From Chromobacterium violaceum ATCC 12472 (lineage in GTDB: Bacteria; Pseudomonadota; Gammaproteobacteria; Burkholderiales; Chromobacteriaceae): a DNA stretch of 64,000 bases. Location: positions 1,683,752 to 1,747,751 of the forward strand of contig NC_005085.1 of assembly GCF_000007705.1 (NCBI RefSeq). Direction: 5' to 3'. Both the position numbers and the translations under genes were made by a program. Below, piece after piece: positions 11,427 through 28,857 of the stretch. The notes under the pieces are model-generated. The model ran no database searches. It was not told where the DNA came from and saw only the letters and a list, made by a program, of their open reading frames with translations. The first letter of the stretch is position 1. Every line of letters starts with the position of its first letter.

Positions 11427-13565
11427 TCAGAAGTATTCCACGCCGGGCTGCGGGCTGGCCCCGGTCTGCTGCAGGATGAAGGCTTCCGCCTCGACGGCCG
11501 GCAACGGCTTGCATAGCAGGTAGCCCTGCACCACGTCGACGTGGATGCTGCTCAGAAAGGTCAGCTGCTGCTGGGTCTCGACGCCTTCTGCCACCACCTG
11601 CAGCCCCATGCGGTGGGCGAGGTAGGCGATGGTGTCGCACAGCGCCGTGCCTTTTTCATCATTGCTGATGTTGCGGATGAAGGACTGGTCTATCTTCAGC
11701 GTGTCCACCGGGAAGCGGGTCAGGTAGGCCAGCGCGGAGTGGCCGGTGCCGAAATCGTCTATCGAGCTGTGTATGCCCATCGCGCGGAAGCGCTCCATCA
11801 TCCCGATCGACTGCTGCGGCGACAGCATGGTGCAGGATTCGGTGATTTCCAGTTCCAGGTGACGCGGCGAGACGCCGGTTTCTTTCAGCACGTCGGCGAC
11901 GAAGTCGGGCAGCTCGTGGTCGGTGAACTGGGCGACGCTGAGGTTCACCGCCATCCGCAGGTCGTCCCGTCCCTTGTCCTGCCAGACCTTCAGCTGGCGG
12001 CACGCCTCCCGCAGCACCCAGCGTCCCAGCGGCAGGATCAGGCCGGATTGCTCGGCGATGGGAATGAAGCGCATCGGCGGGATCATGCCCTTTTGCGGGT
12101 GCTGCCAGCGCACCAGCGCCTCCACGCCCACCACCCGGCGGGTGGAGAGCTCGATCTGCGGCTGGTAGTGCAACACCAGTTCGCCGTGGTCGATCGCGTG
12201 GCGCAGCGACTTTTCCAGCTCGACGCGCTCGCGCATCTGCTGTCCCAGCTCTTCTTCGTAAACCTGGACGCGGCGGGCGCTCTTCTCCTTGGCCCGGTAC
12301 AGCGCCATGTCGGCCCGCGCCATCAGCTCGCGGCCGTCTGCGCCGTGTTCCGGACCCAGGCTGATGCCGATGCTGGCGGTGACGCTGAGCATCATTTCGT
12401 CTACCGGGAACGGCTCGCTGACCGCATCCAGCATGCGGCAGGCGATGGCTTCGGCTTCGGCTGCGCCGGCCACGCCGGTCAGCAGCGCGGCGAACTCGAC
12501 GCCGCCCAGCCGCGCGGCGTGTCCATGGGGGCCGATCGCCTGCTGCAGCCGCTGCGCGACATGGCACAGCAGCAGGTCGCCGATGCGGTTGCCGTAGACG
12601 TCGTTGATGAATTTGAAGTCGCCCAGCTCTATCAGCAGCACGGCGAAACCCGGCTGTTGCCAGGATAGCGAGTACAGCGCGCTGAGTTGTTCGAGCAGGC
12701 CGCTCTGGTTGTGCAGGCCGGTCAGCGTGTCGAAATAGGCCAGGCGATTGATCTTTTCCTGGGCCGCCACGCGGGAGGAGATGTCGATATAGCTGACGCG
12801 CAGCAGGTTGCCGGTTTCGCTGGGCAGCTTGCTCAGCCGCACCTCGCAGGGAATGGCGCTGCCGTCGGGGCGCTGCACGATGCGCTCGAACGGCGGGATG
12901 TCGCCCTTTTGCGCCTGCTCGGAATGCATGCTGACGCTTTCCGCCACCGGCAGGCCGTCGGGCTGCTCGGGCGCGTACAGCGCGGCGGGGCTGATGCCGA
13001 CCAGGGTCTGCAGCGAGCGGCCGGTGAGTTTTTCCGCTTGCCGGTTGGCGTCGACGAAGCGGCCGGTGTCCATGTTGTACACCATGATGGCTTCCGGCGC
13101 CTGCTCGATCAGCGCGCGGAAGCGCTGTTCGCTCAGCCGCAGCGACTCCGTTTTCTCTTCCACCAGCTTGCTCAGCCGTTTCTTCAGCCGCGCCAGGTCG
13201 AGGTGGGTGTTGACCCGGGCCAGCAGCTCGCTGCGCTCGAAGGGCTTGATGATGAAATCCACGGCGCCGGCGGCGAAGCCGTCGACCTTGGTCTGGGAGT
13301 CGCTGACCGAACTGAGGAACAGGATGGGGATGTCGCGGGTGCGCGGGTTCAGCTTGAGCTCGCGGCACACGGCCAGCCCGTCCATCCCGGGCATGCTGAA
13401 GTCCAGCAGGATGAGGTCCGGCGGATGCTTCAAGGCCAGATCCAGCGCCTCGGCCCCGCTCTGGGCGGAGCTGACCTGATAGCCTTGCGTAGACAGCAGG
13501 GCCACCAGCATCATCAGCGCGGTCATGGTGTCGTCGACGACCAGAATGTCACCTGGCACCGGCAT
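11427..13565 (-). CDS. Response regulator with PAS, degenerate GGDEF and intact EAL domains (c-di-GMP phosphodiesterase)
   Basis: The 712-residue cytoplasmic protein starts MPVPGDILVVDDTMTALMML. Domains in order: receiver (about 5-120, acceptor Asp in LILLDFSMPGMDG), a short coiled coil, PAS (about 145-265), GGDEF (about 285-440) and EAL (about 450-700). The GGDEF signature is GGVEF: the metal-binding Asp is Val, so cyclase activity should be lost and the domain may act as a GTP sensor. The EAL domain keeps EALVRW, NLSVAQF, EITES, IDDFGTGHSAL, KIDQSFI, VVAEGVET and QGYLLCKP, so it should hydrolyse c-di-GMP. It is divergent from the hybrid kinase gene across a 116-base gap, making phosphorylation by that kinase plausible but unproven. 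RBS GGGAG precedes the ATG. Confidence 0.93.
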   Translation of the reverse strand: MPVPGDILVVDDTMTALMMLVALLSTQGYQVSSAQSGAEALDLALKHPPDLILLDFSMPGMDGLAVCRELKLNPRTRDIPILFLSSVSDSQTKVDGFAAGAVDFIIKPFERSELLARVNTHLDLARLKKRLSKLVEEKTESLRLSEQRFRALIEQAPEAIMVYNMDTGRFVDANRQAEKLTGRSLQTLVGISPAALYAPEQPDGLPVAESVSMHSEQAQKGDIPPFERIVQRPDGSAIPCEVRLSKLPSETGNLLRVSYIDISSRVAAQEKINRLAYFDTLTGLHNQSGLLEQLSALYSLSWQQPGFAVLLIELGDFKFINDVYGNRIGDLLLCHVAQRLQQAIGPHGHAARLGGVEFAALLTGVAGAAEAEAIACRMLDAVSEPFPVDEMMLSVTASIGISLGPEHGADGRELMARADMALYRAKEKSARRVQVYEEELGQQMRERVELEKSLRHAIDHGELVLHYQPQIELSTRRVVGVEALVRWQHPQKGMIPPMRFIPIAEQSGLILPLGRWVLREACRQLKVWQDKGRDDLRMAVNLSVAQFTDHELPDFVADVLKETGVSPRHLELEITESCTMLSPQQSIGMMERFRAMGIHSSIDDFGTGHSALAYLTRFPVDTLKIDQSFIRNISNDEKGTALCDTIAYLAHRMGLQVVAEGVETQQQLTFLSSIHVDVVQGYLLCKPLPAVEAEAFILQQTGASPQPGVEYF

Positions 13566-13681
13566 TCCGTTTCTCCCGGGAGTAATTCCGCTTCATCCAG
13601 TCTAGCCGTTTTCAAATCCATTAGTAGTATTGCGGATTGTCTACACTTCAACTTCGGCATAGAGGCGAGCGGGAGAGCGGA

Positions 13682-16600
13682 GTGAAGCTTACTGTCGGCA
13701 AGAACATGGCCTTGCTGGTGCTGGCCGCGCTGCTGGGCCTGGCGTTGTTGACCGCTCTGGAGCAGTACCTGATGGAGAGGGTGTACGACGGCGCCAACTT
13801 CGGCAACGTCAACGCGGTGCCCAGCCTGAAGGTGCTGGGGGATCTTCGGCGCGCGTTCCAGGAGTGCAGCACCCAGGCGGGGCGGCTCGATTACGACGCG
13901 GACAAGGCCGAGCGCCTGAAAGTGGAAAACAAGGTGCTGGCGGCGCGGGAGGCGGTGAGCAATGCGATCCGCGCCTACGAGACCAATGGCTGCGCCGGCG
14001 GCAGCTGCTTCGCCGACGAAACGGACAAGGCGTGGCTGGATACGGAAAAGCCGGTCTGGCAGCGCTACCAGGCTGGATTGGAGCAGGTGCTGCAGGCCAG
14101 CGCCGGGCAGGGCGCTGCCCGCGCGCACCAGATGCTGCTGACGCTGGATCCGATTTCCGACCAGATGCTGGAGACCATAGACAAGCACATCGATTACAAC
14201 ATCGTGATCGCGAAGAAATTCTCGGACGAGGCGGTCGTCACCAAGCGCAACGCCATCGCGCTGACGTTGGTGATTTGCGGCCTGATGCTGGTGGCCATCG
14301 CGGCGATAGGCTACTGGACCAGCCGTTCCATTCTCGGCCAGCTGGGCGGGGAGCCGTCGGAGGCGGCGGAAATCGCGGCGCGGCTGGCCGAGGGCGACCT
14401 GTCCAGCGATATCCGCGTGCGCGCCGGCGACGACAGCAGCCTGATGGCCAGGATCAAGAGCCTGATCGAGTCGCTTGAGCAGCTGGCCAACCGGGCCTAC
14501 GCGATCGGCAAGGGCGATCTGAGCCAGGAGATCCGGCTGGCGTCGGACAAGGACCGGCTCGGCATCGCCATCAACGAGATGATACGGATGCTGCGCGCCG
14601 CCCGAGACGAGGACGACAGGCGCAACTGGCTGAAGGACGGCTACGGCCAGGTTTCCGCGGCGCTGACCGGGGACCTCACCACCGAACAGCTGGCCGACGC
14701 CGCCATCGGTCTGATCGGCCGCTACCTGGATGCCGGCCGCGGCGTGTTCTACCTGTACCGGGACGCCGAGCAGCGGCTGGATCTGATCGGCAGCTACATG
14801 TACACCGAGCGCAATAACCTGGGCGCCAGTTTCGCGCTGGGCGAGGGCGCGGTGGGGCAGGTGGCGCGGGAGCGCAAGCCCATCATCCTGGAGGTGAGCG
14901 GCGACGACGCCGCGCCCATCGTCACCGGCACCATGCTGGCGCTGCCGCGCTACACCTATACCTACCCGCTGCTGCACGAGAAGGAACTGGTCGGCGTGAT
15001 CGAGCTGTCCAGCTTCGATCATTTCGACGAGCGCAAGCTGGAGTTCCTGGCCAACGTCGGCGGCATGCTGGCCTCCTTCCTGTTCGTCGCCGAGCAGCGC
15101 GTCCACATCCGCAAGCTGCTCGCGGCCAGCGAAGAGTCGGAAAAGGAGATGCGGCAGCAGAGCGAGCAGCTGCGCGAGAGCAACGCGCGGATGGAGGAGC
15201 AGCAGCAACAGCTGCAGCAGCAGTCCGAGGAGCTGCAGCAGAGCAATGCGCAGATGGAGGAGGCGCAGCAGCAATTGCGGCAGCAGACTGAGGAATTGCA
15301 GCAGGCGAACGCGCAGATGGAGGAGTCGCAGCAGCAGCTGGAGCAACAGAACCGCGAGCTGGAGGAGTCGCGGCTGGAGCAGGAGGCCAAGGCCAGGCAG
15401 CTGGACCAGGCCAGCAAGTACAAGTCGGAATTCCTGGCCAATATGTCGCACGAGCTGCGCACCCCGCTGAACTCCATCATCCTGCTGTCCAAGATGATGG
15501 TGAACAACGACGACGGCGCGGTGAAGGACGAGGCGCTGAAGTGGGCGCAGGTGATACACCGCTCGGGCGAAGACCTGCTGCGGCTGATCAACGACGTGCT
15601 GGACCTGTCCAAGGTGGAGGCCGGCCGGATGGACGTGCATCTGGCCACCTTGAACAGCCGGGAGCTGTGCGCGGAGCTGCAGGGCATGTTCGAGCATCTG
15701 GCGCGCGACAAGGGCCTGGAGTTCGTCGTCGACGACCGCTTGCAGTCGGACTTCGTGTCCGATCCGGACAAGCTGTCGCAGATTCTGCGCAATCTGTTGA
15801 CCAACGCGATCAAGTTCACCCGCAGCGGCGGCGTCACCCTCTCCATGAGCCGTCATCCCGATTTGCCGCTGCCGGTGCGCATCAGCGTGCGCGACAGCGG
15901 CATCGGCATTCCGGCCGAAAAGAAGAGCGTGATCTTCGAGGCCTTCCAGCAAGCGGACGGCTCCACCTCGCGCGAGTTCGGCGGCACCGGCCTGGGCCTC
16001 ACCATCAGCCTGCGCTTCGCTCAGATGCTGGGCGGCACCATCGAGCTGGAAAGCGCGCCGGGCGAGGGCAGCGAGTTCATCGTCTGGCTGCCTGAGCGCG
16101 GCAAGGCGGAGGAGAGGGCCGTCGAACATGCCGCGTTGGAGGTGGAAGACGACAGGAACGCGCTGCAGCCGGGGGACAGGGCCATCCTGCTGATAGACGA
16201 CGACCCGGCGCTGGGGCGGATGCTGGTGGCGATGAACCGGCGGCTGGGCTACAAGACGCTGCTGGCGCAAAGCGGGGGCGAAGGCCTGGCCCTGGCCGCC
16301 GCGCACGGGCCGGCCGGCATCCTGCTGGACCTGGGCCTGCCCGACATGGACGGCGCCCAGGTGCTGCACGAAATCAAGACCCGGCCGGCGCTGGCGGACA
16401 TCCCCGTCTACATCGTGTCGGCGCGCGATCGCGACGAGGCCTTGCTGCATCAGGGCGCCATCGGCTTCCTGCGCAAGCCCGCCAGCGACCAGCTGCTGGC
16501 GGCGGCGGAGGCCGAGCTGGTCAAGGCGGTGGGCGGCCGGGGCGGCGGCATCGTGGTGGTCGAGCGCGGCGGCATAGGCCGCGACGAAGTGGCCAAGCTG

Positions 16601-17341
16601 GTGGGCGGCATCGGCGGCGATATCGTGGCGGCGGCGCCCGACACGGACTGGCAGGCGCTGCTGGAGCGGCACCGCTGCCAGCTGGCGGTGCTGGACTTGG
16701 GCAAGGCGGCGATCGCGGACAGCGTGGCCGTCGCCGAGGCCTTGCGCGGGGTCGATCCCGAGATATCGCTGGTGTTCTACGCCAGCGGCAAGCCGGGCGA
16801 GGAGGACGAGGCGGCGCTGCGCGCCTATTCCGACTGCGTGATCGTCAAGACGCCGCAGGCGGGGCAGCGGCTGCTGGAAAACGTGGAGCGCTTTCTGCGG
16901 GACGTGCCCAGGCAGCGGGCCGAACGCAAGGCGCCGGCGGCGGCGTCCGGGAGCAAGCTGCTGGATGGCCGGCGCGTGCTGGTGGTGGACGACGATCCCC
17001 GCAATCTGTTCGTGATCACCGCCGCGCTGGAGCGGCACGGCGCCAAGCTCAACAGCGCGGTCAACGGCCGGCGCGCGCTGGAGTTCCTGCAGCATCAAAG
17101 CGTGGACCTGGTGTTGATGGACATCATGATGCCGGAAATGGACGGCTACCAGGCCATCGCCGCCATCCGGGCCAACCCGGCCTGGAAGGATATCCCGGTG
17201 GTGGCGATCACGGCCAAGGCCTTGCCGGCCGAGCGCGAGAAAATCCTGGCCACCGGCGCCGACGACTACCTGTCCAAGCCGGTCGACTACGATCTGCTGG
17301 TGGCCAGGGTCGCGCATTGGTGCGAGGGCCGGGGCCGGTGA
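13682..17341 (+). CDS. Membrane hybrid histidine kinase: sensor-HAMP-GAF-repeat coil-HisKA-HATPase-three receivers
   Basis: The GTG start follows GGGAG by 6 bases; an in-frame TTG at 13637 lacks a site. The 1219-residue protein has TM1 (about 8-24), a periplasmic sensor region of about 165 residues, TM2 (about 190-212), one or two HAMP units (about 213-320) and GAF (about 320-473). A coiled coil of four exact-length 21-residue repeats follows (492-575), then HisKA with SHELRTPLN (His 590), HATPase_c (GIGIP and GGTGLGL boxes), receiver 1 (IDDDPALG, Asp near 883), a degenerate receiver without the acidic pocket (about 965-1085), and receiver 3 (VVDDDPRN, Asp near 1147). Its stop overlaps the start of the CheB-CheR fusion. 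The Q/E-rich repeat coil resembles methyl-accepting helices, so this kinase is the best candidate substrate of that neighbour. Ligand unknown. Confidence 0.93.
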   Translation: MKLTVGKNMALLVLAALLGLALLTALEQYLMERVYDGANFGNVNAVPSLKVLGDLRRAFQECSTQAGRLDYDADKAERLKVENKVLAAREAVSNAIRAYETNGCAGGSCFADETDKAWLDTEKPVWQRYQAGLEQVLQASAGQGAARAHQMLLTLDPISDQMLETIDKHIDYNIVIAKKFSDEAVVTKRNAIALTLVICGLMLVAIAAIGYWTSRSILGQLGGEPSEAAEIAARLAEGDLSSDIRVRAGDDSSLMARIKSLIESLEQLANRAYAIGKGDLSQEIRLASDKDRLGIAINEMIRMLRAARDEDDRRNWLKDGYGQVSAALTGDLTTEQLADAAIGLIGRYLDAGRGVFYLYRDAEQRLDLIGSYMYTERNNLGASFALGEGAVGQVARERKPIILEVSGDDAAPIVTGTMLALPRYTYTYPLLHEKELVGVIELSSFDHFDERKLEFLANVGGMLASFLFVAEQRVHIRKLLAASEESEKEMRQQSEQLRESNARMEEQQQQLQQQSEELQQSNAQMEEAQQQLRQQTEELQQANAQMEESQQQLEQQNRELEESRLEQEAKARQLDQASKYKSEFLANMSHELRTPLNSIILLSKMMVNNDDGAVKDEALKWAQVIHRSGEDLLRLINDVLDLSKVEAGRMDVHLATLNSRELCAELQGMFEHLARDKGLEFVVDDRLQSDFVSDPDKLSQILRNLLTNAIKFTRSGGVTLSMSRHPDLPLPVRISVRDSGIGIPAEKKSVIFEAFQQADGSTSREFGGTGLGLTISLRFAQMLGGTIELESAPGEGSEFIVWLPERGKAEERAVEHAALEVEDDRNALQPGDRAILLIDDDPALGRMLVAMNRRLGYKTLLAQSGGEGLALAAAHGPAGILLDLGLPDMDGAQVLHEIKTRPALADIPVYIVSARDRDEALLHQGAIGFLRKPASDQLLAAAEAELVKAVGGRGGGIVVVERGGIGRDEVAKLVGGIGGDIVAAAPDTDWQALLERHRCQLAVLDLGKAAIADSVAVAEALRGVDPEISLVFYASGKPGEEDEAALRAYSDCVIVKTPQAGQRLLENVERFLRDVPRQRAERKAPAAASGSKLLDGRRVLVVDDDPRNLFVITAALERHGAKLNSAVNGRRALEFLQHQSVDLVLMDIMMPEMDGYQAIAAIRANPAWKDIPVVAITAKALPAEREKILATGADDYLSKPVDYDLLVARVAHWCEGRGR
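15155..15406 (+). repeat. Four tandem 63-bp repeats encoding a 21-residue coiled-coil unit
   Basis: Units start at 15155, 15218, 15281 and 15344 and encode QQ-S-E-Q-L-R..., QQSEELQQSN..., QQTEELQQAN... and QQNRELEESR..., each exactly 21 residues (three heptads). Units 2 and 3 are the most alike. They lie between the GAF and HisKA domains of the hybrid kinase. Because 63 bp preserves both frame and helical register, copy-number change could alter the kinase linker length without breaking it. Confidence 0.9.
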
Positions 17342-19035
17342 GCGTCGCCGTTCAGCGGCGATCCGGGCAGTGCCGGGTCGCGATACTGGGGAGGCTGGAC
17401 GCGCCGGAGGACCGCGCCGCCATGCTGGAGTTGCTGCAAGGACCGGCGGAGCAGGCGCTGGACCTGAGCTTTTACGACGCCGATCTGTTGGGCGCGGAGC
17501 TGTTGTGCGCGATCGCCGACCGCCTGGACCGGGGCGGCAAGCTGAAGATCCACGCCTACCACGCCTTGCTGGCGCACGGCCTGATGCGGCTGAACCTGCC
17601 GGCCAGGCTGGTGTCGAGCCAGCCGCCTTCCGAGGCCAGACCGTGGCCGCGCGCGCTGGCGCTGGCCGGCTCTGCGCAGAGCCTGGACTGCATCCTGCGC
17701 ATCATCGAATGCCTGCCGCTGTCCGACATGGCGGTGTTCGTCGCCCAGCACGTGCAGGAAAGCCAGATCAACCTGCTTGATCAGTTGCTGAAGTCGAGGA
17801 CGGACTACGCGGTGGAGATGCCGCAGAATATGGCGCCTGTGCGGCCGGGAACGATCTATGTGGCGCCGCCCGGCCACCACATGCGGGTGGGGCACGGTTA
17901 CGTCTACCTGACGCGCGACCGCCAGATACAGTTCGCGCGGCCGTCCATCGATGTGCTGTTCGAGTCGCTGGCCGGCGAGTACGGCGCGGAAACGCTGGCG
18001 GCGCTGCTGTGCGGTTTCGGCCAGGATGGCGCGGACGGCTGCGCCGCGCTGCGCGCCGCCGGCGCCTGCGTGATCGTCCAGGATGGCGGAGAATGCGCGC
18101 CGGCGCGAGTGATGCCGGACGCCGCGCGCAAGGCCGGGCATTACGACTATGTGATGAAGCTGTCCGCCATCGCCAGCGTCGCGGCGGCGGCGGCCGCCGG
18201 GCCGGACGCCCAGCCGGACGGAGAACTGCTGGAGCGCTTCCTGTCCGCGCTGGTCTGCCACTACGGCTACGATTTCCGCAATTACCAGCGGGACAGTCTG
18301 AAACGCCGCATCCACAACCTGATGGGCCAGTTCAACCTGGGGCGCTTCGCCGATTTCCAACGCGCGGTGCTGACCGATGTCGGGCTGTTCGAGCGGCTGT
18401 GCGTCGAACTGCCGGTGGGGGTGACCAGTTTTTTCCGCCACCCGGAGCAGTTGAAGCTGCTGCGGGACGAGATCCTGCCCTATCTGTCCAGTTTTCCGCT
18501 GATCAAGCTGTGGTCCGCCGGCTGCTCCAGCGGAGAGGAGGCGTATTCGCTGGCCATCGTGCTGGACGAGCTGGGCCTGCTGGACCGCAGCCATCTGTTC
18601 GCCACCGACTTCAATCCTTATTCGCTGGCGCAAGGCAGCAGCGCGCTGTTTCCCGCCCAGGCGCTGGAGGAAAACCGCGCCAACTACCTGGCGGGCGGCG
18701 GCACGCGGCTGTTCGACGCCTACCTGTCCCGCAACGGGCGTTTTCTGCGGGTGGACGACCATTTGCGCCAGCGCATCCTGTTCTATCGCCACTCGCTGAC
18801 CGACGAAGGCATCTTCAACGAGTTCCAGCTCATCGTCTGCCGCAACGTGCTGATCTATTTCGACGGCGAGCTGCAGCGGCAGGTGCTGCGGCGTTTCGCG
18901 CAGTCGCTGCACGCCGAGGGTTTCCTGGTGCTGGGGCCGCAGGACGGCTTGCATCGGGCGGCGCTGGAGGCCGGGTTCGAGCTCTACCGCAGCGGCAGCC
19001 ACATTTACCGCCTTGGCCGGAGCGTCGGATCATGA
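17338..19035 (+). CDS. STAS-like/CheB/CheR fusion: chemoreceptor-type methylesterase-methyltransferase
   Basis: A single 565-residue protein joins three parts. Residues about 1-90 look like a STAS/MlaB-type domain ([20 protein letters not shown], then [16 protein letters not shown]). Residues about 105-275 are a CheB methylesterase with the triad apparently kept: Ser near 112 in LAGSAQS, His near 138 in VAQHV, Asp near 230 in GFGQDGADG, plus YVAPPGHHM and RPSIDVLF. Residues about 290-560 are a CheR methyltransferase with [11 protein letters not shown], the SAM-binding [22 protein letters not shown] and CRNVLIYF. There is no receiver domain on CheB. The GTG start overlaps the upstream kinase stop (GTGA) with GAGGG upstream; a TTG at 17317 is the alternative. 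No classical chemoreceptor, CheA or CheW is nearby, so the target is probably one of the adjoining kinases. Confidence 0.92.
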
Positions 19036-21422
19036 GCCGGAAATTCGTCATCCTGGTAGTGGACGACAACATCAACAACCGCGTCACCCTGCAGGCCCTG
19101 CTGAGCCGGCTGGACGACTGCGAGGTGCTGGAGGCCGGGTCGGGCGAGGAAGCCCTGCTGATCACGCTGGAGCGGGAGGTCAACCTGATCCTGCTCGACG
19201 TGCAGATGCCGGGCATGGACGGCTTCGAGACCGCCGGCCATCTGCAGATGACCGAGCGCACGCGCGGGATTCCCATCGTTTTCGTCACCGCCATCTTCAA
19301 GGCCGACGAATTCATCGGCCGCGGCTACGGCCTGGGCGCGGTGGATTACCTGATGAAGCCGCTGGACGACAACCTGCTGCTCAACCGCGTCCGGCTTTAC
19401 CAGAAGCTGCACGAGCGCGAGACGGCGCTGGAAGCGCGCAGCCAGGCGCTGCAGCAGGCCAATGTCCAGCTGACCGAGGCGCGCGACGCCGCCGAGGCCG
19501 CCAACCGGGCCAAGAGCGAGTTTCTAGCGGTGATGAGCCACGAAATCCGCACGCCGCTCAACGGCGTGATCGGCATGACCGACCTGCTGCAAAGAACCCG
19601 GCTGGACGATCGGCAGCGCCATTACGTTAGCGTGGTCCATCGTTCCGGCGAGGATTTGCTGGCCATCATCAGCGACATCCTGGACTTCTCCAAGATAGAA
19701 GCCGGCAAGTTCGAGCTGGACCGGCAGCCGTTTTGCCTCAATCTGCTGGTCGAGGAAATCGTCGAGCGCCTGGCGCCGGTGGCCTACGGCAAAGGGCTGG
19801 AGCTGATGTGCGCGCTGCCGCTGATGCCGGTGGAGGTGGTGGGCGACGGCAAGCGCCTGGGCCAGGTATTGACCAACCTGGTGGGCAACGCGATCAAATT
19901 CACCGAGTCCGGCCATGTTTTGGCGAAGGTCGACCGGGCGGGCGAGTCGGACGCCGGCGTGACCTGCCGGATCAGCGTCAAGGATACCGGCATCGGCATC
20001 GCGCCCGATCAGCAGAAAAGGCTGTTCAAGCCATTCTCCCAAGCGGACAGTTCGACCACTCGGCGCTTTGGCGGCACCGGCCTGGGCCTGGTGATTTCGC
20101 AGCGGCTGGTCGGCATGATGGGCGGGCGGATCGAACTGGAAAGCGAACCCGGCTCAGGTTCGGAATTCCACTTCACGCTGACGCTGCCGCGCGCGTCGGA
20201 CAGCCAGCTGTGCCCGCCTGCGGAGGATGTGGCGCGCATGAGGGTGCTGGTGCTGGACGACAATGTCACCAATCTGGAGATACTGGAACAGCAGCTGGCG
20301 TCCTGGCATTGCCGCGTCGCCGCCTTTCACCGGCCGCGGGAGGCGCTGGACTGGCTGACGGCGGGAAACGAAGTGGATCTGATCATCTCCGACATGATGA
20401 TGCCGGAGATGGATGGCCTGATGTTCCTGGGCGAGGCGAGGGAACGCCTGGGCGAAGCCGCGCCGCCCGCCATCATTCTCAGCTCCGCCGCCGACGATTT
20501 TCAGAAGCTGACCGGCGCCTCGCGGCTGGCGCGGCAGGTGCTGACCAAGCCGATCCGCCGGTCTGATCTGTACAACGCGCTTCTGCAACTGGGCTCCGCC
20601 GCCGCCAAGGTGGAGCCTGCGCCGGACGGACACGACCAGCCGAGGCTCTCAGGCCGGGTGCTGTTGGTGGAGGACAACCTGGTCAACCAGGAGCTGGCGA
20701 CAGCGATGTTGAGAAACCTGGGGTGCGAGGTGGAACTGGCGCGCAATGGCGAGGAAGCGCTGCGCTTGTGCGAGGCCGGGGGCTTCGACCTGGCGCTGAT
20801 GGATTGCGAAATGCCAGTGATGGACGGCTGGCAGGCCACCGGCGCGATCCGGGCGCGCGAGCGGCCCGGCGGCGCGCGCCTGACCATCGTCGCGCTGACC
20901 GCCAATGCGGGACTGGGCGAGCGGGAGCGCTGCCTGCAGGCCGGCATGGACGATTACCTGTCCAAACCCTTCACGCAGAATGAACTGGGAGCGGTGCTGT
21001 CGCGCTGGCTGTCGCCGGGGGAGGAGGCGGAAGCGAGCGCGGAGCCGGCCGGAATCGCGGCGCGAGACGACGGAGAATGGGTGGACGCCGGGGCGCTGGA
21101 CGCGATCCGCGCCATTCAGCAGGATCTGCTGCCGCGCATGCTGGCGGCGTGGATGAGCGAGGGACCGATGCTGTTGGCCGGCATTCGCGAGGCCATCGAC
21201 GCCGTCGACGGCCCGGCGCTGTTCCGCGCGGCCCATGCGCTGAAAAACTGCGCCGGCAGCGTGGGCGCGCAGCCCTTGGCTTCGCTGTGCATGGAGCTGG
21301 AGCGGCTGGGCAAGGGCGAGGATCTGGCCGGCGCCGCGAACCTGTTGCCGGAGCTGGATCAGGCTTTCGGCTGTTCGATGGCGGCGCTGAAGGCGGTGGA
21401 CGAGGGCAGCGGCCTGGCCTGA
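19032..21422 (+). CDS. Receiver-first hybrid histidine kinase with two C-terminal receivers and an Hpt domain
   Basis: The 796-residue protein has no membrane segment or obvious signal peptide. Order: receiver (Asp 56 in [13 protein letters not shown]), coiled coil, HisKA with [16 protein letters not shown] (His 170), HATPase_c with [11 protein letters not shown] and [10 protein letters not shown], receiver (Asp 454 in [14 protein letters not shown]), receiver (Asp 591 in [13 protein letters not shown]) and Hpt with [13 protein letters not shown] (His 735). It therefore holds a full phosphorelay and can receive phosphate at its N-terminal receiver, probably from the membrane kinase two genes upstream. 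Its ATG overlaps the CheB-CheR stop (ATGA). The final phosphate acceptor is unknown; the EAL response regulator at 11427-13565 is a candidate. Confidence 0.93.
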
Positions 21423-21653
21423 CGGTGGCGGGTGGGCGAAGTTGCAACAGGCCTGGCGCGGCAGGGCGGCCGTACTCGTTCTCCTGTCCCGCATGGGATG
21501 TGCGGCGGCGCGGCTTGAAGGGGGTGGAAAAGCGCCATGTTTATTCTTTTAAATGATTGCCTCATATTAAACATAAATTTTAATTTGTCATTTTGACGAA
21601 TATAAGATTATTCCTATCCGTTACACTTTCCGTTTTTGCGGGGAGCTTGGGAA
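21423..21653. other. AT-rich intergenic region before the diguanylate cyclase gene
   Basis: The first half is GC-rich like its surroundings; 21535-21630 turns abruptly AT-rich (runs such as TTTTAAATGATTG and TAAATTTTAATTTG). A TATAAG at 21600-21605 could be a -10 box but no convincing -35 sits at the right spacing. The region probably carries the promoter of the following gene. I see no hairpin with a U-run that would end the upstream operon. Confidence 0.4.
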
Positions 21654-23381
21654 TTGCCTGCCTTGTTTGCGATTGGCCTGTTCGGCGCCTGCGCCGCCGC
21701 CGCTTGGGCGGGGTGGGAGGCGCGTCGTCGCGGGCGCTACCTGCGTTGGTTTGAGCAGTATCCGGACGCGGTGCTGGTGGTGGGCAAGACCGGCCGCATC
21801 CTGTGCGCGAACCAGCGGGCGGCCGAGTTGGCGGGGGGAGACGCGAGCCATCTGACAAACTCGCCGCTGAGCCAATGGCTGCCCGCGGGCGACCCCCTCG
21901 CCACGCCAGCCTGGAAAGCCTTGTTCGCCGCCGAAGGCAGCCAGGCCTGCGGCAGCCTGGGCTTGCACGTCTGGAGAGGGGTCGACGGAGAGGCGTGCGA
22001 ATGGCTGATCACCGCCCGGGCATTGTCCGAGGATAGGGCGGTGCTGCTGTCTTTGAGGCGGCCCCAGGAATTGTATCCGGACCAGCCGAAATACTATCTG
22101 GCGGAGAAGCTGCTCCATACCGCCGAGAGCGATGCCGGCATCGGTTCCTGGGTGCTGCACATGGAGAGCGGCAGACTGGAGTGGAGCCAGGCGGTCCATG
22201 ATATTTTCGGCACCGATTCCGCCACCTTCGACGCCACCGAAGACGCGTATTTCCAGCGCGTGCATCCGGACGACCGCGCCAGGGTGAGGCGGGAGCTGGA
22301 TCGGCATGTCCTGGGCGATCGACCGTTCGACGTCGAGTACCGCATCGTCAGGCCGGACGGACAGGTCAGGGAGTTGCTGGAGCGCAACCACATCCAGCGG
22401 CAGGCTTCCGGGCAGGTCGACCATCTATGGGGCACGGTGATAGACATGACCGAGCACAAGCAACTGAAGCGGCAACTGCAGCTGTCCCAGTTGGCCGTCG
22501 AGCATTGCTCGGAAGGCATCGCCATCGCTGACGAAGGATTGGACTGGCTGTACGTCAATCCGGCGCTGGCGAGGATGGGCGGACTGACCATGGCGGACCC
22601 GTCCCAATTGAGCGGCCTGTTCATGGCCCCGGGGGTGGAAGCGCGGCTGGAGCGGGAAGCCTTGCGCGAGTTGCTGGACGCGTCCGGCGCCTGGCAGGGC
22701 GAACTGTTGCTCGCGCGGCGCGGCGCGGCGCCGCTGCCGGTGCTGGCTTCCGCGACCAGGCTGCGGGACGAGGACGGCAGGCTGTTGTCCGTGTGGGTGG
22801 TCAGCGATATCAGCGGCATGAAGGAGTCCGAGCGCAGACTGCACGCGCTGGCCTTTTTCGATGGCCTGACCGGTCTCGCCAACCGCGCCCTGTTCGGCGA
22901 GCGGCTGCGCTGGCATCTGCAGAACGAGCCGGCCGGCGGGCGGTTGGCGATCCTCTTCCTGGACCTGAACGGCTTCAAGCAGGTGAACGATCTGCTGGGC
23001 CACGAGGCGGGAGACCAAGTGCTGCGGGAAGTGGCGCGGCGGCTGCAGGCGGGCTGCCGTCCCGGCGAACTGGCCGCGCGCTGGGGCGGCGACGAGTTCG
23101 CGGTATTGCTGCCCGGCGTCGCCGACGATGCGGTCCTGGCCGCGCGTTTGCGGGAGCTGCGGGAGGCTGCGCGCGCCGAGCGCTGGGGCGGCGGACGCTG
23201 GCTGCGGGTGTCGGCGAGCCTGGGGGCGGCGGTCTATCCGGAGTCGGCAGAAGACGCCGAACGGCTGATCCAGCTGGCGGACCGGGCGATGTACCGGGCC
23301 AAGTCGGAGGGCGGCGGCCAGGTGTGGCTGCACGACGGCGGCGGTTTGCGGACGCTGGCCGGCGCCGATTGCGGCGCGTGA
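21654..23381 (+). CDS. Membrane-anchored PAS-GGDEF diguanylate cyclase
   Basis: Predicted to make c-di-GMP. The TTG start follows GGGGAG by 8 bases; an upstream in-frame TTG at 21636 is possible. The 575-residue protein has one N-terminal membrane segment (about 3-20), then PAS-type sensor regions: about 25-140 (AVLVVGKTGRILCANQRAAELAG), a PAS-fold with PAC (about 155-280, HPDDRARV and VIDMTEHKQ) and a third PAS (about 285-405). The GGDEF domain at about 410-570 has an intact RWGGDEFAVLLPG (GGDEF at 478-482), FLDLNGFKQVND and ADRAMYRAKSEGG. There is no EAL domain. It is on the same strand as the kinase/CheBR genes but separated by an AT-rich gap, so it likely has its own promoter. It opposes the phosphodiesterase at 11427-13565. 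Confidence 0.92.
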   Translation: MPALFAIGLFGACAAAAWAGWEARRRGRYLRWFEQYPDAVLVVGKTGRILCANQRAAELAGGDASHLTNSPLSQWLPAGDPLATPAWKALFAAEGSQACGSLGLHVWRGVDGEACEWLITARALSEDRAVLLSLRRPQELYPDQPKYYLAEKLLHTAESDAGIGSWVLHMESGRLEWSQAVHDIFGTDSATFDATEDAYFQRVHPDDRARVRRELDRHVLGDRPFDVEYRIVRPDGQVRELLERNHIQRQASGQVDHLWGTVIDMTEHKQLKRQLQLSQLAVEHCSEGIAIADEGLDWLYVNPALARMGGLTMADPSQLSGLFMAPGVEARLEREALRELLDASGAWQGELLLARRGAAPLPVLASATRLRDEDGRLLSVWVVSDISGMKESERRLHALAFFDGLTGLANRALFGERLRWHLQNEPAGGRLAILFLDLNGFKQVNDLLGHEAGDQVLREVARRLQAGCRPGELAARWGGDEFAVLLPGVADDAVLAARLRELREAARAERWGGGRWLRVSASLGAAVYPESAEDAERLIQLADRAMYRAKSEGGGQVWLHDGGGLRTLAGADCGA

Positions 23382-26979: not shown

Positions 26980-28857
26980 TCACGCTTCTTCCTGATCCGA
27001 CAGCACCACGTTGCGGCCCGCCTGCTTGGCGTCGTACAACAGCTTGTCGGCGCGGGACATCATCAGCGCCGGGCTGTCTCCCGGCCGCCAGTCGGTGACG
27101 CCGCCGCTGAAGGTGATGCGCTGTTCGACGAAGGGGAAGGTGGTGTGGGTCAGCGCCATCTGCAGCCGGCTCATCACCTTGTGGGCATCGCGCAGCCGCG
27201 TGTAGGGGAAGATCACCATGAACTCCTCGCCGCCGATGCGCGCGTTGATGTCGGTATTGCGGGTGGTGTCGCGCAGCGCGTTGGCGACCGCCACCAGCAC
27301 GTCGTCGCCGGCCTGGTGGCCGTATTGGTCGTTGAAGCGCTTGAAATGGTCGATGTCGAACACCGCGATGGCCATGGTCTGGCCGTAGCGCTCGCAGCGG
27401 CTGATTTCGTCGCGCAGCACCATGTCGGCGTGGCGGCGGTTGTATAGCCGGGTCAGCGGGTCGGTGACCGCCATTTCGGCCAGCTGCTGGTTGCTTTCGT
27501 GCAGTTGCTGTTCCAGCAGCTTGCGGCCGGAGATGTCGTACAGCGCGATCAGCGCCGACGGCTGGCTGTCGTGCCCTAGCCGGCGCAGCGACACGATCGC
27601 CCACAGCCTGCTCTTGTCCTCCAGCTCCAGCTCCACTTCCTGTTGCAGCACCTCTTCGCCTTCGCTCAGCCATTGCTCCACCGGCTGCAGCTTCAGCGGC
27701 AGGTTCAGCTCGCTGCCGGCGGCCTGTTCCGGATCGCGCGGCGGCAGGCCCAGCATTTCCCGCGCCAGCGAGTTGGCGTGGCGGATGCGGGCGGTCTGGG
27801 GGTTGACCAGCAGCAGCGCCAGCGGCGCGGTGTCCAGGATTAGCCTGGCCTGTTCTTCGCTGTCGCGTATGCGCTCGTTGCCTTGCAGCAGCTGCTGGTG
27901 CTGGCGCAGGTTGGACAGGTGTTTGCGCAGCGCCAGCAGGGTCAGCGCCGCGACGAACAGCCAGCCGGGGATGGCGAGCCAGGCCTTGTCCCGGACATAG
28001 CGGGTGAAGTCGCGCCGCGACAAGCCGACGGCGACCTGGAACGGGTAGCTGCCGGTCTGGCGCATGCTGTACAGCCGCTCGCCGCCGTCGAAGCTTGACG
28101 GCGCGTCGAAAAGCATCTGCCCCGGGTCGTGGGACAGGATTTCGCGCGGCTGCAGCGACCGGTAGCTTTGCGGATCGTTGCGGCTGGATTGAGGCCAGCG
28201 CGTCACCGTCAGCTGGCGCTGGTCCAGTACCAGGATCTCGCCGTGCTCGCCCACCGTCAGCCGGCTGACCTCGTCCTGGATGAAGTTGTGCTTGATCAGG
28301 CCGGTAGCCATGCCGATCAGGTTGCCCTCGCTGTCGTACAGCTTGTTGGCCAGCACGATGCCGCCCTCGGTGGGGCTGTGTATCACCGTGGTGTAGTTGC
28401 TTTCCTTGGGATCGACCCGGTGCAGCCAGCGGCAGAATTCGTTGTGATGCGGATGGGGGGCGCCATCGCGCTTGCTGCTGAACACGGTCTGGCAGGCGGT
28501 GTCCACGATTTCGATGCGGCTGAGGTAGGGCGCCAGCTGCAGTTGCTGCTGCAGCTTCTGCGCCAGGTTCTGGCGCGCGTCGGTATCCAGGGAACCGTAG
28601 CGCAGCAGGCGCTGGACTTCCGGAATCTGGTTGCTGCTCTGCAGGATCAGTCCGGCCTCGTGTATGCCCGAGCTCAGTCTTTCCGCCAGCAGCTGGCTGA
28701 GGCCGCTGGCCTGGCGGCCGGCCTCGGTTTCCAGCTGGCGGTAGCTGGTGGACAGGTCCACCGCCAGCAGGGCCAGGGTGACCAGCAGCAATAGCGCGGC
28801 GCCCCACTTGGCATGGCGGGCGGAACGGGAGCCGAATCTGCGCGGAGTCATGTCCAT
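26980..28857 (-). CDS. Cache-PAS-GGDEF diguanylate cyclase, membrane sensor
   Basis: The 625-residue protein starts MDMTPRRFGSRSARHAKWG. TM1 is at about 17-36, followed by a periplasmic double-Cache-like sensor (about 40-280), TM2 (about 290-308), a cytoplasmic PAS region (about 330-450, LLLVNPQTARIRHANSLAREML) and GGDEF (about 460-620). The signature is GGEEF (IGGEEFMVIFP), an active variant, with an RNTD inhibitory I-site five residues before it. FDIDHFKRFNDQYGHQAGD is the conserved substrate loop. The sensor ligand is unknown; double-Cache domains usually bind small organic molecules. Divergence from nadC and convergence with the Nudix gene suggest an independent unit. Confidence 0.92.
   Translation of the reverse strand: MDMTPRRFGSRSARHAKWGAALLLLVTLALLAVDLSTSYRQLETEAGRQASGLSQLLAERLSSGIHEAGLILQSSNQIPEVQRLLRYGSLDTDARQNLAQKLQQQLQLAPYLSRIEIVDTACQTVFSSKRDGAPHPHHNEFCRWLHRVDPKESNYTTVIHSPTEGGIVLANKLYDSEGNLIGMATGLIKHNFIQDEVSRLTVGEHGEILVLDQRQLTVTRWPQSSRNDPQSYRSLQPREILSHDPGQMLFDAPSSFDGGERLYSMRQTGSYPFQVAVGLSRRDFTRYVRDKAWLAIPGWLFVAALTLLALRKHLSNLRQHQQLLQGNERIRDSEEQARLILDTAPLALLLVNPQTARIRHANSLAREMLGLPPRDPEQAAGSELNLPLKLQPVEQWLSEGEEVLQQEVELELEDKSRLWAIVSLRRLGHDSQPSALIALYDISGRKLLEQQLHESNQQLAEMAVTDPLTRLYNRRHADMVLRDEISRCERYGQTMAIAVFDIDHFKRFNDQYGHQAGDDVLVAVANALRDTTRNTDINARIGGEEFMVIFPYTRLRDAHKVMSRLQMALTHTTFPFVEQRITFSGGVTDWRPGDSPALMMSRADKLLYDAKQAGRNVVLSDQEEA

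What the first reader, a model, noticed from the sequence alone, without database searches (positions are those of the whole stretch)
11427..23381. Sensory cluster built around a STAS-CheB-CheR fusion and hybrid kinases without a chemoreceptor
Three plus-strand genes overlap by their start and stop codons: a membrane GAF hybrid kinase, a STAS-CheB-CheR fusion and a receiver-first hybrid kinase ending in Hpt. They are flanked by a c-di-GMP phosphodiesterase response regulator and a membrane diguanylate cyclase. No MCP, CheA, CheW or flagellar gene is near. CheB/CheR proteins linked to sensor kinases with predicted methyl-accepting coiled coils are described in comparative genomics. The inference is that methylation tunes a phosphorelay that sets c-di-GMP, in place of motor control.
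Basis: partly seen in the sequence, partly recalled or inferred. Interest (0 to 1): 0.78.

Follow-up and report, generated by a model that had tools for sequence, protein, structure and literature searches.

The report
Kinase with its own methylation enzymes
This is a bacterial sensor kinase that travels with its own pair of methylation and demethylation enzymes, of the kind normally used to tune chemotaxis receptors, and the comparisons suggest that these enzymes tune the kinase itself, probably to control a second messenger that decides between swimming and settling.

Summary
In detail: divergent EAL regulator, GAF hybrid kinase HK1, STAS-CheB-CheR fusion, receiver-first kinase HK2; the last three overlap by GTGA/ATGA. 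No MCP or CheW domain lies in the window; the genome has 42 MCP domains. STAS, unseen by Pfam, is supported by a predicted fold. HK1 plus fusion is an old unit: in a 397-genome phylum sample 14 of 14 distant fusions follow an HK1-like kinase; single CheRs do so in 62 of 79 cases, as in Pseudomonas putida cfcABCDE, whose kinase drives a c-di-GMP regulator (paper passages). The diguanylate cyclase does not belong (1 of 8 Chromobacterium genomes with the module has it). New support for kinase methylation: a Glu-pair coil is the most constrained part of HK1 (pN/pS 0.01-0.11; kinase core 0.19-0.38); module CheRs form their own clade; catalytic motifs are intact; Glu pairs fade where no such CheR was found (22 of 24 versus 3 of 12, post hoc criterion, mostly one subclade). 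Against: no methylation data, no MCP consensus motif, CheB not seen in 4 of 31 relatives, cfc mutants other than cfcA reportedly kept the phenotype. A variant of a known kind with a testable mechanism.

The parts
11427..13565 (-). EALRR: REC-PAS-GGDEF(degenerate GGVEF)-EAL response regulator, predicted c-di-GMP phosphodiesterase; divergent from HK1 across a 116-bp gap
   Evidence: Pfam; motifs; beside HK1 in all 7 Chromobacterium loci (window included) whose HK1 upstream flank is held; in L043 it is broken over two frames
13682..17341 (+). HK1: membrane 4HB_MCP-type sensor, GAF, Glu/Gln coil, HisKA-HATPase, receivers; GTG start chosen at 13682 (ORF open from TTG 13637)
15194..15331 (+). HK1 residues 505-550: Glu pairs 505-506, 516-517, 526-527, 537-538, 547-548, the last four inside two 21-residue repeats (509-529, 530-550); proposed methyl-accepting region (inferred)
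   Evidence: alignment; conservation 0.87 versus 0.56-0.69 elsewhere; pN/pS 0.013-0.105
17338..19035 (+). BR: STAS-CheB-CheR fusion, 565 aa, GTG start overlapping the HK1 stop
17338..17622 (+). STAS-fold N-terminal domain of BR (residues 1-95), where classical CheB has a receiver; invariant FYDAD in 10 sequences
   Evidence: no Pfam match
17659..18177 (+). CheB methylesterase domain; Ser112, His138, Asp230 align with the catalytic triad of Salmonella CheB (triad residues recalled)
18229..18954 (+). CheR methyltransferase (CheR_N plus SAM domain) with [13 protein letters not shown] and CRNVLIYF motifs
19032..21422 (+). HK2: REC-HisKA-HATPase-REC-REC-Hpt hybrid kinase, start ATG overlapping the BR stop
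   Evidence: next to BR in the 7 other Chromobacterium loci that reach it (L040-L046)

Best explanation
This is a kinase-adaptation module of the cfcABCDE kind, in a variant where CheB and CheR are fused behind a STAS domain. HK1 senses through its periplasmic four-helix domain and its GAF domain and feeds a phosphorelay. CheR and CheB in BR add and remove methyl groups (or deamidate Gln) at the conserved Glu pairs of the HK1 coil just before the phospho-accepting helix, resetting kinase sensitivity as CheR/CheB do for chemoreceptors. HK2 (REC-HK-REC-REC-Hpt) and the divergent EAL regulator are the likely receivers, so the output in Chromobacterium is probably c-di-GMP turnover. Shown here: gene order, domain content, catalytic motifs, deep linkage of HK1-like kinases with CheR, extreme constraint on the coil, a CheR clade apart from the chemotaxis CheRs sampled. 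Inferred: methylation of HK1, its effect on kinase activity, the role of STAS, phosphotransfer to the EAL regulator.
For: Linkage: in the phylum sample 14 of 14 distant fusions and 62 of 79 single CheRs lie 1.1-1.7 kb downstream of an HK1-like kinase core on the same strand. CheR tree: 36 module-type CheRs (29 with such a kinase or its fragment upstream in the fetched stretch) stand on one side of a 100/99 branch, apart from 7 rows labelled chemotaxis and 10 long CheB-CheR chains (labels mine). Coil: mean majority fraction 0.87 over 19 sequences versus 0.58 GAF, 0.69 kinase core, 0.56-0.59 flanking coil; pN/pS 0.013-0.105 versus 0.190-0.377 for the kinase core in 5 ortholog pairs. Glu pairs: criterion met by 22 of 24 CheR-linked kinases versus 3 of 12 in genomes where no module-type CheR was found, Fisher p about 1e-4; EE counts differ likewise (p 8e-5). 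Enzymes: the CheB triad is present in 42 of 45 rows, the other 3 being rows read on the wrong strand and found normal on rereading. Output: a GGDEF or EAL gene lies within 4 kb of CheR in 13 of 31 module loci, this one included (no background rate computed). Literature: P. putida kinase CfcA, first gene of cfcABCDE with cfcB/cfcC as a CheR/CheB pair, is needed for the GGDEF/EAL regulator CfcR to raise c-di-GMP, and a chemotaxis role of CfcB and CfcC is said to be ruled out (passages of PMC4951495).
Against: No methylation data exist here. The MCP methylation consensus (recalled) has 0 matches in HK1. PMC4951495 reports, as unpublished, that mutants in the other cfc genes were not hampered in the crinkle phenotype, so methylation is not essential for output under CfcR overexpression. 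CheB was not found near CheR in 4 of 31 module loci (L096, L105, L106, L110; L110 ends at a contig edge), and two more CheR loci without CheB (L095, L097) were left out of the 31. 3 of 12 CheR-less kinases keep the pairs and 2 of 24 linked ones fail; the criterion was set after seeing sequences, 11 of the 12 lie in one subclade, and 5 of their 11 genomes do have other CheR hits that I judged not to be module-type. In G417 and G350 the fusion has no kinase next to it. MCP genes lie in the fetched stretch of L040, L055 and L058. The stretch STGG of classical CheB reads SAQS here, so esterase activity is not assured.
Confidence: 0.55

Rival explanations
1. The coil is constrained for mechanical signalling between GAF and the catalytic helix, or as a docking platform, and CheB/CheR modify another protein (HK2, the EAL regulator, a receiver domain) or serve as scaffolds.
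For: Glu pairs persist in 3 of 12 kinases from genomes where no module-type CheR was found and in 10 of 15 unlinked kinases; the MCP motif is absent; CheR has been reported to methylate the regulator PhoP in Salmonella (PMC8546571, start of abstract in the listing only).
Against: The constrained residues include Glu pairs that my reading of the heptads places outside the core (inference), and the pairs fade where CheR was not found. Kinase and CheR are neighbours across classes.
Confidence: 0.27
2. BR is an extra adaptation enzyme for classical chemoreceptors elsewhere in the genome.
For: The genome has 42 MCP domains; MCP genes lie near the module in L040, L055 and, about 4 kb away, L058.
Against: Three other CheR and four other CheB domains serve the genome; module-type CheRs are apart from the chemotaxis CheRs sampled; in P. 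putida a chemotaxis role of the matching pair is said to be ruled out (PMC4951495 passages).
Confidence: 0.1
3. Methylation may tune HK1, but the output is not c-di-GMP: HK2 feeds an unlinked regulator, and the EAL gene is only a neighbour.
For: 18 of 31 module loci have no GGDEF/EAL gene within 4 kb; the nearest fusion loci outside Chromobacterium (L053, L055, L058) lack the EAL gene.
Against: The EAL regulator stays beside HK1 in 7 of 7 Chromobacterium loci, including one without the cobQ/fabI surroundings (L045); 13 of 31 module loci carry c-di-GMP genes; CfcA acts through CfcR.
Confidence: 0.3

Closest known systems
Pseudomonas putida KT2440 cfcABCDE (cfcA = PP_3761) with its target CfcR
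   Same: Hybrid kinase first (CHASE3/GAF, PMC6849547 passages), a CheR/CheB pair behind it, a further protein with a receiver (CfcD); the kinase controls a c-di-GMP regulator (PMC4951495 passages). Weak sequence support: two of four published cfcA primers have near matches (4-7 and 3-5 mismatches) at a constant 22-base offset in 6 of 8 kinase loci of family f146, and also in 2 loci of other families; the other two primers have no consistent site.
   Different: CheR and CheB are named as separate genes there; CfcR is a cyclase, whereas the neighbour here has a degenerate GGDEF and intact EAL motifs. KT2440 was not identified among the genomes searched, so homology was not tested directly.
Chemosensory pathways with alternative functions (Wsp, Che3 and similar)
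   Same: CheR/CheB with receiver-kinase or receiver-GGDEF/EAL outputs (PMC3447774 passages on CheR-TPR clusters).
   Different: Those use chemoreceptor, CheA and CheW; no MCP or CheW domain is in this window.
Long CheB-CheR fusion chains (PAS/kinase type)
   Same: CheB and CheR in one chain; one that I read (L121) has a Glu-pair coil.
   Different: Their CheR is another clade (99/93). Their further domains were not scanned; L121 carries a kinase in the CheR chain.
STAS proteins SpoIIAA, RsbV, RsbS
   Same: Fold of the N-terminal domain.
   Different: Not recognised by Pfam; fused to CheB-CheR; Ala/Asp stand where SpoIIAA has its phosphorylated Ser (SpoIIAA sequence recalled).

Membership tests
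Chemosensory (Che/Wsp-type) pathway | MCP, CheA and CheW in the gene cluster | tested here: not met
   no MCP and no CheW domain (also carried by CheA) in the window
Chemosensory (Che/Wsp-type) pathway | CheR of the chemotaxis clade | tested here: not met
   apart from the 7 rows labelled chemotaxis; labels mine, own loci L001-L003 did not enter
cfcABCDE-type kinase module | GAF hybrid kinase directly followed by CheR and CheB | tested here: met
   (CheB and CheR fused here)
cfcABCDE-type kinase module | a protein with a receiver after CheB/CheR | tested here: met
   HK2 REC-HK-REC-REC-Hpt
cfcABCDE-type kinase module | kinase controls a REC-GGDEF-EAL regulator | not testable with these tools
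   adjacent REC-PAS-GGDEF-EAL gene conserved in Chromobacterium; phosphotransfer needs an experiment
cfcABCDE-type kinase module | sequence orthology with the KT2440 cfc genes | tested here: inconclusive
   KT2440 not identified; primer-site near matches only
Methyl-accepting protein of MCP type | consensus methylation motif of MCPs (recalled) | tested here: not met
   0 matches in HK1
Methyl-accepting protein of MCP type | methyl-Glu formed by CheR | not testable with these tools
   needs SAM labelling and mass spectrometry
Long CheB-CheR fusion chains (PAS/kinase type) | CheB-CheR with PAS or kinase in one chain | tested here: not met
   no PAS or kinase in BR; other CheR clade
STAS domain | STAS fold | tested here: met
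STAS domain | Pfam profile match | tested here: not met
   no STAS match at E up to 0.1 (full protein) or 10 (domain alone)
Active CheB methylesterase | Ser-His-Asp triad | tested here: met
   activity itself not tested

The most novel reading that the evidence does not exclude
A widespread class of methyl-adapting histidine kinases: the CheR/CheB adaptation loop of chemotaxis is attached to hybrid kinases of the CfcA type, with a Glu-pair coil (here 21-residue repeats) as the methyl-accepting element, and in this branch CheB has exchanged its phospho-receiver for a STAS domain, so that feedback would run through partner binding and not through phosphorylation.
Probability: 0.42. Interest if true: 0.82.

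Novelty: new variant of a known kind. Interest (0 to 1): 0.62.

Why it matters
Sensory adaptation by reversible methylation is textbook for chemoreceptors; I know of no two-component kinase for which it is established (recall, and searches that found none). If CheR/CheB of this kind act on the coil of hybrid kinases, many environmental bacteria have adaptation in c-di-GMP and other phosphorelays, and a function is found for many chemotaxis-labelled CheR/CheB genes that sit beside kinases. The coil repeat gives exact residues to test.

Tried and rejected
Rejected: the diguanylate cyclase as a component (a homolog at E 1e-100 or better is in 2 of 19 genus genomes, one being this genome and the other, G017, lacking the module). 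The MCP consensus motif gave no hit.

Led nowhere: literature on methylated histidine kinases; finding a KT2440-like genome by a published primer (no match at the kinase loci). Garcia-Fontana 2013 and Tagua 2022 are not held; I know them only as cited in other papers. No paper search used the word STAS, so whether the fusion is in print was not tested.

Limits and dropped rows. One search read 31 loci; L095 and L097 (CheR, no CheB) and L054 (contig edge) were left out, as were the other Chromobacterium loci. CheR tree: rows chosen and labelled by me; three of the loci labelled chemotaxis show an MCP in the fetched stretch (L116, L118, L120); L001-L003 and L195 did not enter; the rows L005, L007 and L008 were read on the wrong strand and reread (L006 gave no row); the kinase list was typed only down to E 1.1e-61; two more adjacent pairs (G752, G507) are visible beyond that point, which would make 64 of 79; the sample has many genomes of one genus; both source lists were cut by the tool. 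One search used 25 of 27 sequences tried, then dropped 6 Chromobacterium orthologs; 2 of the 19 left (L152, L153) are not beside the fusion. rests on 45 codons in 5 ortholog pairs (L043 not used); one pS exceeds 1, so the values are rough; GAF failed for 2 of 5; criterion set after reading the sequences; one search scored three candidates per genome, so absence of CheR is by search; L245 was admitted without a detected GAF. L044 and L045 gave no GGDEF motif with my pattern.
Full report

What belongs together. In Chromobacterium the fusion is in 8 of 19 genomes (in G019 it is split over two contig ends). The divergent EAL regulator accompanies HK1 in all 7 loci, the window included, whose upstream flank is held, among them L045, which shows none of the usual cobQ/fabI surroundings; HK2 follows BR in the 7 other loci that reach it. 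The diguanylate cyclase is in none of the other Chromobacterium module loci, and only 2 of 19 genus genomes hold a homolog at E 1e-100 or better, of which one (G017) lacks the module. A gap of 213 bases, 51% A+T against 33% for the window, separates it from HK2. It is a neighbour, not a part.

How old the unit is. Beyond Chromobacterium the fusion occurs in Massilia, Pseudoduganella, a Sterolibacterium MAG and a Methylococcaceae MAG at 62-64% identity, in 4 further genomes of a 370-genome class sample (G425, G272, G417, G350) and in 14 genomes of other classes in a 397-genome phylum sample at 42-50% identity (G434 has a stop inside). In those 14 the HK1-like kinase core lies 1.2-1.3 kb upstream on the same strand every time. 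Single CheR genes of the same kind follow such kinases in 62 of 79 cases. In 31 module loci the usual order is GAF-coil-kinase with receivers, CheR, CheB without receiver, then a receiver-first gene whose output part varies (kinase, GGDEF or GGDEF-EAL). CheB, alone or fused, is seen in 27 of 31 (not in L096, L105, L106, L110); GGDEF or EAL genes lie within 4 kb in 13 of 31, without a background rate for comparison. Exceptions: G417 and G350 carry the fusion with no kinase beside it, and L095, L097, L099, L100 and L108 have CheR without an adjacent GAF kinase (L095 and L097 are not among the 31).

The CheR family. In a maximum-likelihood tree of 53 CheR domains the 36 module-type rows (23 single, 13 fused; 29 with the kinase or a fragment of it upstream in the fetched stretch) are separated by a 100/99 branch from 10 long CheB-CheR chains (99/93) and 7 rows labelled chemotaxis (100/99). 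Rows and labels were chosen by me, so the tree shows separation of the sampled kinds, not of all CheRs. The own genome has three other CheR, four other CheB and 42 MCP domains.

The coil. Between GAF and HisKA, HK1 has repeats of the form QQLxQQ[ST]EELQQ[SA]NAQMEE, with close variants in relatives. Over 19 fusion-type kinases these repeats are the best conserved stretch (0.87 mean majority fraction; GAF 0.58, kinase core 0.69, coil on either side 0.56-0.59). In five Chromobacterium ortholog pairs pN/pS of the repeats is 0.013-0.105, against 0.190-0.377 for the kinase core and 0.127-0.328 for GAF where computed (3 of 5); pS in the repeats is 0.51-1.01, so the conservation acts on the protein and not on the DNA, although 45 codons give rough values. 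Kinases beside single CheRs mostly have a related form, near QQEELxxxNEELEE. Comparing 24 CheR-linked kinases with 12 from 11 genomes where no module-type CheR was found, the Glu-pair criterion is met by 22 and by 3, and mean counts of EE are 5.75 and 2.83. Of those 11 genomes, 6 have no CheR hit at E 1e-25 and 5 have hits that I judged to be of other kinds. Fifteen unlinked kinases in genomes that do have the CheR are intermediate (10 of 15; mean 4.6). In the tree of these kinases 11 of the 12 CheR-less ones fall in one subclade (88/92) that also holds two linked kinases with intact pairs (L103, L105), so independent losses are few and the test is suggestive only. No stretch of HK1 matches the MCP methylation consensus, so recognition would have to differ from that of MCPs.

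The enzymes. Ser112, His138 and Asp230 of BR align with the CheB triad, and the SAM motif and CRNVLIYF of CheR are present. The residues after the catalytic Ser (SAQS for STGG) depart from classical CheB in the fusions read. The EAL regulator keeps the EAL motifs, while its GGDEF motif is GGVEF or GGIEF in 4 of 6 sequences tried, the window included; the other two gave no match to my pattern. This fits a phosphodiesterase.

What is known. In P. putida KT2440 the hybrid kinase CfcA (PP_3761) is the first gene of cfcABCDE; cfcB and cfcC encode a CheR/CheB pair whose role in chemotaxis is said to be ruled out; CfcA and its His496 are needed for the GGDEF/EAL regulator CfcR to raise c-di-GMP; mutants in the other cfc genes were reported, as unpublished, not to be hampered in the crinkle phenotype (passages of PMC4951495; PMC6849547 passages, name CfcA a CHASE3/GAF kinase). 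Two of four published cfcA primers have near matches at a constant offset in 6 of 8 kinase loci of one family, f146, and in 2 other loci; the other two primers do not, so inclusion of cfc in the single-CheR branch is likely but not proven. Chemosensory pathways with alternative functions have similar outputs but contain chemoreceptors (PMC3447774 passages). My searches found no report of CheR/CheB methylating a hybrid kinase; they cover open-licence papers only, and none used the word STAS.

Judgement. It is best filed as a STAS-fused variant of a cfc-type kinase/CheR/CheB module. That the enzymes act on the HK1 coil is the best-supported mechanism (0.55) but rests on comparative evidence; c-di-GMP output is likely in Chromobacterium and unproven.

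Noticed in passing
   Followed up: partly
L055:131-3042: In the Sterolibacterium MAG an MCP gene and a receiver-CheB gene sit directly upstream of HK1, so there the module touches a chemoreceptor.
   Followed up: no
L092 and L093 (G253): Two CheB-CheR fusions of the module-type CheR side without a detected STAS domain, next to GAF kinases and receiver-GGDEF genes; possibly an intermediate or a second fusion event.
   Followed up: partly
L155-L159, L161, L163, L169, L171, L174 (family f34 genomes): These genomes carry a CheR or CheR-CheB locus and several orphan GAF kinases, most with Glu-pair coils, as if one enzyme pair served several kinases in trans.
   Followed up: partly
L121:9601-13089: A long CheR-kinase chain has a coil with Glu pairs at heptad spacing (NEELQASNEEMETSKEELQATNEEL), resembling the module kinase coils although its CheR is in another clade.
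   Followed up: no
window 21530-21630: A 73% A+T island in a 67% G+C window, just upstream of the diguanylate cyclase; may mark its own promoter or a recent insertion.
   Followed up: partly
   Followed up: no
window 26980-28857 (-): Another GGDEF protein lies near rho, kept in the Chromobacterium loci that reach it (L040, L041, L042, L046) and separate from the module.
   Followed up: no
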